Below, piece after piece: positions 18,017 to 22,055 of a stretch of 32,036 nucleotides of DNA. The notes under the pieces were generated by a model. The model was not told the DNA's origin. It made no database searches and worked only from the letters and a program-made list of their open reading frames with translations. The position numbers and the translations under genes were made by a program. The stretch's first letter is position 1, and every line of letters starts with the position of its first letter. Source of the stretch: a virus; IMG/VR virus record IMGVR_UViG_3300046003_000023, positions 1 through 32,036 of that record; one strand, written 5' to 3'.

Positions 18017-18937
18017 TTAGTAAAAAAGGTTTCGAGGCACAAAACGAATAGAAGCCTTCTCTCGGTCCTCGTCTGCAGCAAGTTGGAACTGTTGTTCGTA
18101 ATCTTGTTTAAGCATAACAATTCTATTTGGATCCACTTCTGGCAGCTTCATGCTTAGGCTAAACGCAAGCCCAGAAACCAAACAGGGAATAAAACGAAAT
18201 GGAATGTCTTGTGTAGATACGCCGCCACCAGAGTCTTGAATACGACGCATTCTGTAGTAAACGAACGTATATTGGTCACCCGGTGCATTAGGTGTAGGCC
18301 AGACGTTAATGTTTGGTGGGAATGTTTGGTAAACAGAAGCTGCTGTTAAATGCGAGGCTGCCGTTGTATTAGCCTGTCCACGAAAGCAGTTCAACAGTTG
18401 GCTGCCACTTACGTTCTGGTACATGATAATTTCGTTATCAACCTTGATGTAGCCTTGGCTTGGTAAGTTTGCCGCTGATATCACAGTGATAGTTGTATCT
18501 GTTGCCGTTATCCCACCGTTTAAAGTTGTCGTAGCAATTGCGTTTGTATTGCCAGACTGCCGGTTAATCCACACCTGAATGGGACGCCCTTGAGCGTTTT
18601 TAGTGGGGATTGTGATGTAAGTGGACTCAGAGATACGGGTAATGTTGATATCAACCTGATTTTGATCGGAACCTGTGCGAATAACGGTATCCAACAGATC
18701 AATTGTCTCAGTAGGTAGAGCGTAAGTTGCCTGCCCTGTAACCATCGGAATCTGACCTTGCTCGATAGTCCACAGGTTAATACCACGGTTTGCCCACTCA
18801 ACCGTCAATAGGTTAATGCTACGACGTGCCGTGCGCAGATCATATCCAGTACGCAGCTCTTTGCCGCAACGCTCAAACGCCTCTTCCACCAACTCGGAGA
18901 GGTCAAGATTAAACGACGAGGTACCAGAAGTCGTCAT
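18017..18937 (-). CDS. gp4-like tail accessory / adaptor protein with inserted beta module
   Basis: A 306-residue protein. The N-terminal helices LSELVEEAFERCGKELRTGY, then LRTARRSINLLTVEWANRGI, followed by LPTETIDLLDTVIR, match the helical core of podoviral gp4-like accessory factors that extend the portal. Residues about 136-203 (TLNGGITATDTTITVISAAN, EIIMYQNVSG, FRGQANTTAASHL) are an inserted beta module that also occurs in the nozzle-like protein. The C-terminal helices PFRFIPCLVSGLAFSLSMKL and MLKQDYEQQFQLAADEDREK complete the core. It starts in TAATG with the Gly/Met-rich gene. It probably works with the 224-residue adaptor in head closure. Confidence 0.75.
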   Translation of the reverse strand: MTTSGTSSFNLDLSELVEEAFERCGKELRTGYDLRTARRSINLLTVEWANRGINLWTIEQGQIPMVTGQATYALPTETIDLLDTVIRTGSDQNQVDINITRISESTYITIPTKNAQGRPIQVWINRQSGNTNAIATTTLNGGITATDTTITVISAANLPSQGYIKVDNEIIMYQNVSGSQLLNCFRGQANTTAASHLTAASVYQTFPPNINVWPTPNAPGDQYTFVYYRMRRIQDSGGGVSTQDIPFRFIPCLVSGLAFSLSMKLPEVDPNRIVMLKQDYEQQFQLAADEDREKASIRFVPRNLFY

Positions 18938-19956
18938 TAAAATGTACCTCGTTTAAACATTTGCGACAATGAAGCTAGTCCAGCAGATGGGTTTTGAAAG
19001 AATTGTTGTGTTTGTGCTTGGCTTTGCGCACGTTGCTCTGGAGTTCTACGGTCTACAAAATCATCACCGCCCATAGCACCACCCATACCACTCATGCCAC
19101 GCATACTTTGAGCGTAAGGACGTGCGTAAGCGGGTATTTGATTCATGCCACCGGGATTGGATAGCGCACCAAATGTTTGAGGTGACATTGAAGACTGACC
19201 AACAGATTGGCTGCCAGCACCCGTTGCACCTTGCATTTGATCCATGTAGTTTTGGTATTGCTGATCCAGTTGCGGGCTTGATGCGCCACCCATGCCGCCA
19301 GCGCCTTGAGCCATGCGCTCTGCTTGTAATGTTTCGGGGCTAACGTTTGCAAAACCACTATTAAGAGGCTGCTGCATTTGGCTCTGACCCATGCCTTGCA
19401 TACCGCCACGGCTATAACCACCCATACCGCCACGGCTATAACCACCCATACCGCCACCAAAACCACCCATCTGTGGGGGTTGGTTAAACCCACCGCCCAT
19501 ACCACCACCGTAGCCACCCATTGGCTGACCACCGCCGCCCATACCAAAGCCACCCATCTGTGGGCCGTATCCACCACCAAAACCACCCATGCCGCCCATC
19601 TGGGGACTAAACCCACCCATACCGTAGCCGCCACCCATCGGGTTGTACTGGTTAAACCCACCACCGAATCCACCACCCATGCCGCCACCAAAACCACCCA
19701 TCTGGGGTGATTGGTTGTATCCACCAAACTGACTCTGCATGGGGCGTTGCATTTGTTGCTGCATTGGCTGGGACTGTTGACCGCCGTAGCCGCCCATAGG
19801 CTGACCGCCACCAAAGCTGTTATTCGCAGGCTGTTGACCAAAGCCACTCGTGTTGTAATTTGGTATCGGTTCATAGCCTCCACCTCCGGGGCCATTGACA
19901 CCACGCATTCCGGGTGGTGTACCACCCATTCCGCCTGCTCCGCCGCCACCAGCCAT
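18937..19956 (-). CDS. Gly/Met/Gln-rich low-complexity virion protein
   Basis: A 339-residue protein. Residues about 1-190 are almost only Gly, Met, Gln, Pro, Phe and Tyr, in repeats such as QMGGFGGGMGGGF and GGYSRGGM. The second half has PETLQAERMAQGAG, a Gln-rich linker, NQIPAYARPYAQSMRGM and a C-terminal helix region DFVDRRTPEQRAQSQAQTQQ ending MFKRGTF. IPAYARPYA is shared with the protein at 374-1927. It lies just before the gp4-like gene. I do not recognise a family. A disordered virion or ejection-associated role is plausible from the composition. Confidence 0.65.
   Translation of the reverse strand: MAGGGGAGGMGGTPPGMRGVNGPGGGGYEPIPNYNTSGFGQQPANNSFGGGQPMGGYGGQQSQPMQQQMQRPMQSQFGGYNQSPQMGGFGGGMGGGFGGGFNQYNPMGGGYGMGGFSPQMGGMGGFGGGYGPQMGGFGMGGGGQPMGGYGGGMGGGFNQPPQMGGFGGGMGGYSRGGMGGYSRGGMQGMGQSQMQQPLNSGFANVSPETLQAERMAQGAGGMGGASSPQLDQQYQNYMDQMQGATGAGSQSVGQSSMSPQTFGALSNPGGMNQIPAYARPYAQSMRGMSGMGGAMGGDDFVDRRTPEQRAQSQAQTQQFFQNPSAGLASLSQMFKRGTF
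19399..19446 (-). repeat. 24-base tandem coding repeat (two exact units)
   Basis: The plus-strand 24-base unit beginning cataccgccacggctataa is present twice exactly, with a partial third unit. It encodes GGYSRGGM twice inside the Gly/Met-rich protein. The surrounding 19399-19710 is a broader field of related ccaccaaaaccacccat copies. Confidence 0.85.
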
Positions 19957-19958
19957 AA

Positions 19959-20198
19959 TTACACCTTCCTAAACTGTTTAACTTTCTGTTTAATTTTAGC
20001 TGGTTGTGGCACAAACTGTTTACCTGCCGCCTTACCTGCTCGTTTAGCTTTAGTCGTTGCTGCATACTCCGCAGGGCTTAATGCTTTAATAGCTTTTTCT
20101 GGCAAATACCGCTCACCCGTTTCCGAGGATTTCTTGCCGGACTTGGTTGTCCATTTCTGGTCACCCCAAGCTTTTAAGGATTTTTGCGGCGCTTTCAA
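19959..20198 (-). CDS. C-terminal half of a split DUF5872-like protein
   Basis: A 79-residue frame with a TTG start (20198-20196) embedded in the stop of the previous ORF (ATTGA). The sequence reads KAPQKSLKAWGDQKWTTKSG, then ETGERYLPEKAIKALSPAEY, AATTKAKRAGKAAGKQFVPQ and a basic tail. This is the pattern I recall for the C-terminal part of DUF5872 proteins (SL-W-W-T-G-RYLP-A-LSP-E-AAT-KR-GKQFV). In the family this part follows a GQWSARKAQ-AKEY-GGGY segment, which here lies in the upstream ORF in the other frame. It is either a coupled two-gene form with GGGGG as ribosome site, a -1 frameshift product, or a 1-base deletion. Confidence 0.75.
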   Translation of the reverse strand: MKAPQKSLKAWGDQKWTTKSGKKSSETGERYLPEKAIKALSPAEYAATTKAKRAGKAAGKQFVPQPAKIKQKVKQFRKV

Positions 20199-20374
20199 TC
20201 TCGGTAGCCCCCGCCAGAAGCCTTATACTTTTTAGCCACTAGCTGCGCTTTTCTCGCGCTCCATTGACCTGCACCTGTACCTTGAGTAGCTGCAGACTTA
20301 ACTTGCGACACAATCTTCTTACGTAGGCTCGGCTTGGTGTAGTTGCCAGCGGCATTTACCTTGCTACTAGCCAT
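20195..20374 (-). CDS. N-terminal half of a split DUF5872-like protein
   Basis: A 59-codon frame, MASSKVNAAGNYTKPSLRKK, then IVSQVKSAATQGTGAGQWSA and RKAQLVAKKYKASGGGYRD. It begins in a TAATG overlap with the gene before it. The TKP-LR-I, GQWSARKAQ-AK-Y and GGGY elements are the N-terminal part of DUF5872-like proteins as I remember them. It stops at TGA exactly where the second half starts in the -1 frame. Confidence 0.75.
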   Translation of the reverse strand: MASSKVNAAGNYTKPSLRKKIVSQVKSAATQGTGAGQWSARKAQLVAKKYKASGGGYRD

Positions 20375-20730
20375 TATTTGTACCCCTTAAATCCTTTAAA
20401 ACCCGGCAAGGCTTTGGCCTTTTTAGTTACACCGCCTTTTGCGTACATACCGGTTTTTAGCTGCTTACGTTTGCCTTGCCGGAACTCTAGTTCTTTTTGC
20501 AGAGCTTGTGTGCGAGGAGCGTTGTTACTGCGCCGCGCTTCTTGAAAACGTTGGTTTAACGTCCCATCATCCAATTGCGGCACACCAGCATTTCCTACAA
20601 ACCCAGCCTCTGGGTCAACCGTGCCACCTTCAGCATACTGCGTGAAGTCAGTATCGTCGCGGCGAGCTTTACGCTTTCCACCGGGCATCTTTGAAGGGAG
20701 CATTGCACCCATACCGCGACTAGACATCAT
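20374..20730 (-). CDS. Small basic protein with two GG motifs
   Basis: A 118-residue protein with a basic N-terminus (MLPSKMPGGKRKARRDDTDF), then TQYAEGGTVDPEAGFVGNAG, a helical middle (LNQRFQEARRSNNAPRTQAL QKEL) and a C-terminus GMYAKGGVTKKAKALPGFKG. It has two (E/K)GG(T/V) motifs of the type seen across neighbouring virion proteins. It overlaps the upstream gene by ATGA and the downstream one by TAATG. No enzymatic signature is visible, and it is probably virion-associated (inference). Confidence 0.65.
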   Translation of the reverse strand: MMSSRGMGAMLPSKMPGGKRKARRDDTDFTQYAEGGTVDPEAGFVGNAGVPQLDDGTLNQRFQEARRSNNAPRTQALQKELEFRQGKRKQLKTGMYAKGGVTKKAKALPGFKGFKGYK

Positions 20731-21128
20731 ATCATTCGACCTTTAGTTTTACCGCGAACAGCACAGCCATCAGCACGACTAGAAGCAGATCCACCTTTAG
20801 CCATCTTTTTAACTGCGCCGCCCTTTTTAAAGCCAGCGTAGTCTAATGATTCATCAGAAAGACGTGGAGCGCTTCTAGACGACGATGTAGGACTCGAAAA
20901 ATCGCGTATGTCACCAGCTTTTTTGGGATCAACGTACGGCAAAGATGTTTCTTTTACCCCATCCCTGACTTCAGTTTTTGCTCCAGCTAAAGCAGCGTCT
21001 CTCTCTGCTTTAGCGGCTTCTTTAGCAGCTTCTTTTCTTGCTTCGTTGCTCATGCCTCTAGTAGCCGCTTTTGTAGCAAGCGCCCTTACGCCTGCGGCTA
21101 CAACCGGGCCAATAATTGGTGCAGGCAT
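20727..21128 (-). CDS. Basic protein ending in the RADGCAVRGKTKG motif
   Basis: A 133-residue protein. An N-terminal hydrophobic stretch PAPIIGPVVAAGVRALATKA is followed by a charged helix NEARKEAAKEAAKAERDAAL. A Ser/Pro-rich middle follows, then FKKGGAVKKMAKGGSASSRA and DGCAVRGKTKGRMI at the very end. The last 25 residues are nearly the same as a segment of the 21139-21561 protein, so the two share a C-terminal tag. GGAGAATATT precedes the ATG. Function is unknown. Confidence 0.7.
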   Translation of the reverse strand: MPAPIIGPVVAAGVRALATKAATRGMSNEARKEAAKEAAKAERDAALAGAKTEVRDGVKETSLPYVDPKKAGDIRDFSSPTSSSRSAPRLSDESLDYAGFKKGGAVKKMAKGGSASSRADGCAVRGKTKGRMI

Positions 21129-21138
21129 AATATTCTCC

Positions 21139-21561
21139 TTAGCAGCTCATGCCGCCGGATTTCATTTTAATCATTGTGCCTTTGGTTTTGCCTTTTGTAG
21201 CGCAGCCATCAGCACGGCTAGAAGCGGAACCACCTTTTGCGAGCTTGGTCATGTTAGACTTTTTGCCACCATGCAACTGCGCTTCGTGCATACCAATAGC
21301 TTTTTTAGCCATTGCTTTGTCTTGCATCATGTCGTCTTTCATAGCACCACCTTCCTTGAATAATGTCATTTTACCGTGATCGGTTTTTGGACTACCAACT
21401 TTCTGTAAGTCAGGACGAGAGCCGGTAGTAAACCTCTTGCCTTTACTTGCTTTTGAATATTCCTGTGCAACACCTACTGGAATGCCTGCTTCTTTTGCAA
21501 ACGCTGGATTATGCGCTGCGGCATCCATGAATTTCTTTTGCTTATCTGATGTGGCTGGCAT
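21139..21561 (-). CDS. DUF3008-like N-terminus plus RADGCATKGKTKG tag
   Basis: A 140-residue protein. The N-terminus (MPATSDKQKKFMDAAAHNPA) and GIPVGVAQEYSKASKGK resemble DUF3008-type small proteins ('Ps.aQ.kFm.aa.....a...gis..vA.e...ask'). The rest has LFKEGGAMKDDMMQDKAMAK, LAKGGSASSRADGCATKGKT, and ends KMKSGGMSC. It therefore carries three GG motifs and the shared Cys motif. It overlaps the upstream gene by TAATG. A virion-associated role is inferred from context. Confidence 0.7.
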   Translation of the reverse strand: MPATSDKQKKFMDAAAHNPAFAKEAGIPVGVAQEYSKASKGKRFTTGSRPDLQKVGSPKTDHGKMTLFKEGGAMKDDMMQDKAMAKKAIGMHEAQLHGGKKSNMTKLAKGGSASSRADGCATKGKTKGTMIKMKSGGMSC

Positions 21562-21800: not shown

Positions 21801-22055
21801 TTAACACTTCCATCTCTTTAAACTTGCGGCTTTGCGGGTAGGTCTTCCTTTCTCGTCTGTCATCGGGCCGGGCATACCAGACATCCGTGCGCAGAACGAC
21901 TTCTTACGAGGACCGCCTTCGGGCTGTGGAGCCTTCAAGTTAGATCCTGTAGCAGCGTTGTACTTGGCACGACCTTTGGCAGTCAACCCTGCCCCCTTGG
22001 ATACGGGTAGCTTCTCGCCACGACCGACAGCCAGAGAAGGGGTCTTCTTAGCCAT
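21801..22055 (-). CDS. DUF6321-like small basic protein
   Basis: An 84-residue basic protein with KGAGLTAKGRAKYNAATGSN, then LKAPQPEGGPRKKSFCARMS and MPGPMTDEKGRPTRKAASLK, ending RWKC. I recognise this as the small conserved phage/bacterial protein annotated DUF6321. It is full length for the family. Two cysteines (in SFCARM and at the last residue) are conserved as I remember it. It overlaps the upstream gene by 8 bases. The molecular role is unknown. Confidence 0.75.
   Translation of the reverse strand: MAKKTPSLAVGRGEKLPVSKGAGLTAKGRAKYNAATGSNLKAPQPEGGPRKKSFCARMSGMPGPMTDEKGRPTRKAASLKRWKC

What the first reader, a model, noticed from the sequence alone, without database searches (positions are those of the whole stretch)
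19959..20374. DUF5872-like protein split into two overlapping ORFs in -1 register
The upstream ORF (59 codons) ends GQWSARKAQ...GGGYRD-stop. The downstream ORF, starting with TTG inside that stop (ATTGA), carries KSLKAW...ERYLPEKA...KQFVPQ. In proteins I recall as DUF5872 both parts occur in one chain. The junction is either programmed -1 frameshifting, termination-reinitiation with GGGGG as ribosome site, or a 1-base deletion near GATTGAAA. A canonical slippery heptamer is not visible, so reinitiation or deletion is more likely.
Basis: partly seen in the sequence, partly recalled or inferred. Interest (0 to 1): 0.65.

Follow-up and report, generated by a model that had tools for sequence, protein, structure and literature searches.

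The report
Two coupled phage genes, not frameshift
The supposedly broken phage gene is two normal neighbouring small genes whose stop and start codons overlap by four bases, an arrangement repeated in dozens of related viruses, although more distant relatives carry the two parts fused into one protein.

Summary
On the minus strand a 59-codon ORF (20374-20195) ends in TGA, and a 79-codon ORF (20198-19959) starts with TTG inside that stop (ATTGA), in the -1 register. The halves match two separate phage families, phrog_17747 and phrog_14910. Relatives settle the interpretation. Of 247 non-redundant loci with the modules split in this order, 55 carry the same TTG overlap. Others have ATGA, GTGA or TAATG overlaps, an 8-nt overlap, small gaps, or whole genes between the modules (1.77 kb in phage HMO-2011). 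Neither a sequencing deletion nor a programmed frameshift explains this, and no -1 slippery heptamer occurs in any of the 55. These are two cistrons, most likely linked by termination-reinitiation at TTG, helped by GGGGG/GGAGG 9 nt upstream (53 of 55). Unexpectedly, 24 Pelagibacter chromosomes carry the modules fused in the opposite order (C-N), suggesting partner domains. Biochemical function is unknown; basic, nucleic-acid-associated late proteins are inferred. The junction is ordinary; the module shuffling is mildly interesting.

The parts
20195..20374 (-). N-module gene, 59 aa, ATG start, TGA stop; basic (pI 10.7)
   Evidence: phrog_17747 E=8e-23; translation; pI
19959..20198 (-). C-module gene, 79 aa, TTG start; basic (pI 10.5)
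   Evidence: phrog_14910 E=4.9e-32; translation; pI
20195..20198 (-). TTGA: 4-nt overlap of the TTG start and the TGA stop
   Evidence: sequence; same junction in 55 of 247 non-redundant split loci
20208..20212 (-). GGGGG, probable ribosome-binding site for the C gene, 9 nt before the TTG
   Evidence: sequence; GGGGG or GGAGG in 53 of 55 TTG-class loci against 16 of 46 purine-ending codons in fused relatives
20374..20730 (-). upstream neighbour gene, overlaps the N gene by 1 nt (TAATG)
18937..19956 (-). downstream neighbour gene, Gly/Gln-rich, 339 aa
   Evidence: no PHROG match

Best explanation
These are two intact, separate late genes of a tailed phage, arranged as a translationally coupled pair. 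A ribosome that ends the N module at TGA restarts at the overlapping TTG, probably held by an internal GGGGG that pairs with the anti-Shine-Dalgarno sequence, and so makes the C module at a linked level. The two products are small, basic, mostly helical domains that act together; in other phages and in Pelagibacter chromosomes they are joined in one chain, in either order. Shown: the two-gene layout, its wide recurrence, the natural fusions. Inferred: reinitiation at TTG, the ribosome-site role of GGGGG, the partnership, and nucleic-acid binding.
For: Each half matches its own PHROG over nearly the full length. Of 247 non-redundant split N..C loci, 55 have TTG at -4, 36 ATG at -4, 8 GTG at -4, 15 ATG at -1, 12 GTG at -8, 22 ATG/GTG at +1, and 89 are more than 60 nt apart. 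HMO-2011 has the two genes 1.77 kb apart with a methanesulfonate monooxygenase gene between; HTVC033P also has genes between; CRP-13, CRP-603, CRP-9 and HTVC035P annotate two genes that abut or overlap. In the TTG class the middle Gly codon ends in a purine in 53/55, giving GGGGG or GGAGG at a fixed 9-nt spacing, against 16/46 in fused relatives that need no internal start, while the next Gly codon uses all four third bases. All 55 keep TGA after a T-ending codon, so the TTG is kept; +1-gap relatives mostly have GAC there. Reinitiation at -4 and -1 distances is established by experiment, and such pairs are enriched for subunits of complexes (PMC10666635). Fusions in both orders (49 N-C, 24 C-N) suggest partnership. 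The AlphaFold model of a natural N-C fusion has two confident helical regions (pLDDT about 90-95) joined by a weak stretch (about 63) at the junction position.
Against: There are no expression data. The purine bias is not independent of ancestry: the phylogeny-controlled pair test had only 2 supported pairs and is inconclusive. TTG is a weak start codon, and many coupled relatives of other junction classes lack an obvious ribosome site. The C-N fusion model is weak (mean pLDDT 62), so contact between the domains is untested.
Confidence: 0.9

Rival explanations
1. Programmed -1 ribosomal frameshifting in the G-rich stretch joins the two frames into one DUF5872-like protein.
For: The downstream frame is -1 and open for 8 codons above the TTG; N-C fusions exist in relatives.
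Against: No X_XXY_YYZ heptamer in any of the 55 TTG-class loci. The register and distance vary freely among relatives, up to whole genes in between. A start codon sits exactly in the stop in every near class.
Confidence: 0.03
2. A 1-base deletion (sequencing error or recent mutation) split a formerly single gene.
For: Fused N-C relatives exist, one of them (L235) with the same KAPQ motif after the junction.
Against: 55 non-redundant loci from many metagenomes carry the same ATTGA junction with diverged synonymous sites; the branch that holds the window is all split; other split loci have different junctions or genes between.
Confidence: 0.02
3. Two adjacent genes without true coupling: the C gene is started independently by new ribosomes at its own GGGGG site.
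For: 89 of 247 split loci have the C gene more than 60 nt away, so coupling is not obligatory; a ribosome-site-like run is present.
Against: Tight -4, -1 and -8 overlaps recur, and such overlaps show strong coupling in experiments (PMC10666635).
Confidence: 0.2

Closest known systems
Pfam PF19197 (DUF5872)
   Same: Fused N-C relatives match it: L223 28.6 bits (profile 3-110 of 116) and L236 28.6 bits (best stretch profile 4-75), both above the 27.5-bit cut-off; 16 of 25 fused relatives match at E<=1.
   Different: The window's halves, alone or joined as a search query, do not match; here the two parts are separate genes.
PHROG families 17747 and 14910 (unknown function)
   Same: Nearly full-length matches of the N and the C gene respectively; all 25 fused relatives match 14910 and 23 match 17747.
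   Different: No difference found; the window genes belong to these families.
Overlapping gene pairs translated by termination-reinitiation (ATGA or TAATG type; PMC10666635, PMC6728339)
   Same: Co-directed genes with a 4-nt stop/start overlap, with many parallel cases in this genome.
   Different: The start codon is TTG, not ATG; coupling itself was not measured here.
Gene pairs of HMO-2011-type phages and pelagiphages (HMO-2011, CRP-13, CRP-603, HTVC035P)
   Same: The same two modules as separate genes.
   Different: ATG starts, other spacings, or genes inserted between them.

Membership tests
phrog_17747 (N module) | profile match over nearly full length | tested here: met
   E=8e-23, residues 3-58, profile 9-63 of 63
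phrog_14910 (C module) | profile match over nearly full length | tested here: met
   E=4.9e-32, residues 1-78, profile 3-80 of 80
PF19197 DUF5872 | score of the window protein at or above 27.5 bits | tested here: not met
   0 matches for either half or the joined query, and none in the whole window
PF19197 DUF5872 | homology through intermediate relatives | tested here: met
   L223 and L236 pass the cut-off and belong to the fused set that matches the window's two PHROGs
PF19197 DUF5872 | both parts in one chain | tested here: not met
   the window has two genes with a stop between
Programmed -1 frameshift | slippery X_XXY_YYZ heptamer in the overlap | tested here: not met
   0 of 55 TTG-class loci; none in the window
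Programmed -1 frameshift | frame relation conserved among relatives | tested here: not met
   -4, -1, -8, +1 and far distances
Programmed -1 frameshift | fused product in the cell | not testable with these tools
   needs proteomics
Termination-reinitiation gene pair | co-directed genes at -4 or -1 nt | tested here: met
Termination-reinitiation gene pair | ribosome site near the second start | tested here: inconclusive
   GGGGG/GGAGG in 53/55 TTG-class loci, but the phylogeny-controlled test lacks power
Termination-reinitiation gene pair | translation of the second gene depends on the first | not testable with these tools
   needs a two-reporter assay

The most novel reading that the evidence does not exclude
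The two modules form an obligate two-part protein that exists as coupled separate genes, as N-C fusions and as C-N fusions, and the Pelagibacter C-N form is a phage-derived protein taken into host use, next to an SDR gene and often a TspO-like gene, possibly for protecting nucleic acid under light stress.
Probability: 0.15. Interest if true: 0.5.

Novelty: new member of a known kind. Interest (0 to 1): 0.25.

Why it matters
It removes a false alarm (neither frameshift nor sequencing error) and shows that a widespread phage protein of unknown function, DUF5872-like, consists of two domains that are found separate, fused N-C and fused C-N. That hints strongly that the two parts work together, and it gives a natural set of constructs for testing binding and function.

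Tried and rejected
Pfam and NCBIfam with the window halves and the joined query gave nothing significant. The PDB by sequence profile (best E 0.14) and by fold (none at E<=0.001) gave no relative. BFVD gave mostly unnamed viral proteins, plus a match on a long protein named ParB/Sulfiredoxin. The phylogeny-controlled test of the ribosome-site bias was inconclusive. The C-N fusion model was too weak to compare domain packing. Programmed frameshifting and a base deletion were considered and rejected.

Full report
The minus strand carries an ATG-started ORF of 59 codons (20374-20195) whose stop TGA overlaps the TTG start of a 79-codon ORF (20198-19959), giving ATTGA and a -1 register. The window is a 32,036-base virus record with terminase, portal and major head genes on the same strand; its terminase is closest to phage DSL-LC04 and pelagiphages HTVC027P and HTVC023P at about 55% identity. 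Both ORFs are genes: each matches a separate PHROG family over nearly the whole profile.

Relatives decide the meaning of the junction. Four scans of IMG/VR, one of bacterial and archaeal genomes and two of cultured phages gave loci that were sorted by script. Of these, 273 have the modules split in N..C order (247 after removing duplicates), 49 have a natural N-C fusion, 24 a C-N fusion, 1 is split in C..N order, and 18 show one module only, some of them perhaps because the contig ends.

Among the 247 split loci the start of the C gene stands at -4 with TTG in 55, at -4 with ATG in 36 and GTG in 8, at -1 with ATG in 15, at -8 with GTG (GTGATTAA) in 12, at +1 in 22, at other short distances in 10, and more than 60 nt away in 89. 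In phage HMO-2011 the two genes are 1.77 kb apart, with a gene annotated as methanesulfonate monooxygenase between them; in HTVC033P other small genes lie between. A conserved frameshift cannot join such arrangements, and a sequencing deletion would not recur in dozens of diverged contigs. No -1 slippery heptamer lies in the usable overlap of any TTG-class locus, and the downstream frame is open for only 8 codons above the TTG.

The most likely mechanism is termination-reinitiation. Distances of -4 and -1 nt are those for which coupling has been shown by experiment and which dominate in prokaryotes (PMC10666635; also PMC6728339), and this genome uses them repeatedly (7 pairs at 4 nt, 7 at 1 nt). 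The TTG triplet is kept in all class members, always with TGA after a T-ending codon (53 GAT, 2 AAT). The Gly-Gly-Gly codons upstream form GGGGG (42) or GGAGG (11) in 53 of 55, 9 nt before the TTG; in fused relatives, which need no internal start, only 16 of 46 have a purine at the deciding base (Fisher p about 7e-12, not corrected for ancestry). A pair test on the tree had too few supported pairs to confirm this. That the G-rich site acts as a ribosome site, and that coupling occurs, are therefore inferences.

The DUF5872 recollection is right in substance. Fused N-C relatives match PF19197, several of them along most of its length and two above the curated cut-off. The window's own halves do not match it, so they are relatives of the family by way of intermediates, not members by the Pfam test.

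The unexpected part is modularity. Twenty-four Pelagibacter genomes carry the modules in one chain but in the opposite order, C then N; the sampled ones form one well-supported branch (99). They lie in a chromosomal setting beside a short-chain dehydrogenase gene in 20 of 24 loci and a TspO-like gene in 15 of 24 (gene names read by eye). Domains that are found separate and fused in either order usually act together. A model of a natural N-C fusion has two confident helical regions joined by a weak stretch at the very place where the window has its gene junction. No solved structure resembles it. Both products are strongly basic (pI 10.5-10.7), and they lie among other small basic genes, between the head genes and later structural genes. 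I infer late, nucleic-acid-associated proteins, with low confidence in that function.

The tree rests on 77 columns, so most forks are unresolved, and the direction of change (fission or fusion) is not settled: at least 8 changes among the three states are needed on the best tree, and starred branches force only 2 for the split state.

Noticed in passing
L175-L198, L371-L373 (Pelagibacter chromosomes): The two modules occur fused in reversed order (C then N) beside an SDR gene (20 of 24 loci) and a TspO-like gene (15 of 24); two of the three wider contexts also hold COG2907-like, DUF1365-like and CFA-like genes, reminiscent of a light or singlet-oxygen response cluster (names by eye).
   Followed up: partly
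L161 (Puniceispirillum phage HMO-2011), 965-2047: A gene annotated as methanesulfonate monooxygenase alpha subunit lies between the two modules, an apparent cargo gene between partner genes.
   Followed up: no
window 20727-21128 and 21139-21561 (-): Two small basic genes share a C-terminal motif like AKGGSASSRADGCAxxGKTKGxMI; with neighbouring basic genes they may form a family of late basic proteins.
   Followed up: no
window 21801-22055 (-): The 84-aa protein is a clear DUF6321 member (PF19846, E=1.5e-23).
   Followed up: no
BFVD A0A6J5PCY7: A 1022-aa uncultured phage protein named ParB/Sulfiredoxin carries a stretch like one of the modules (69% identity over 52 columns), a possible further fusion partner.
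   Followed up: no
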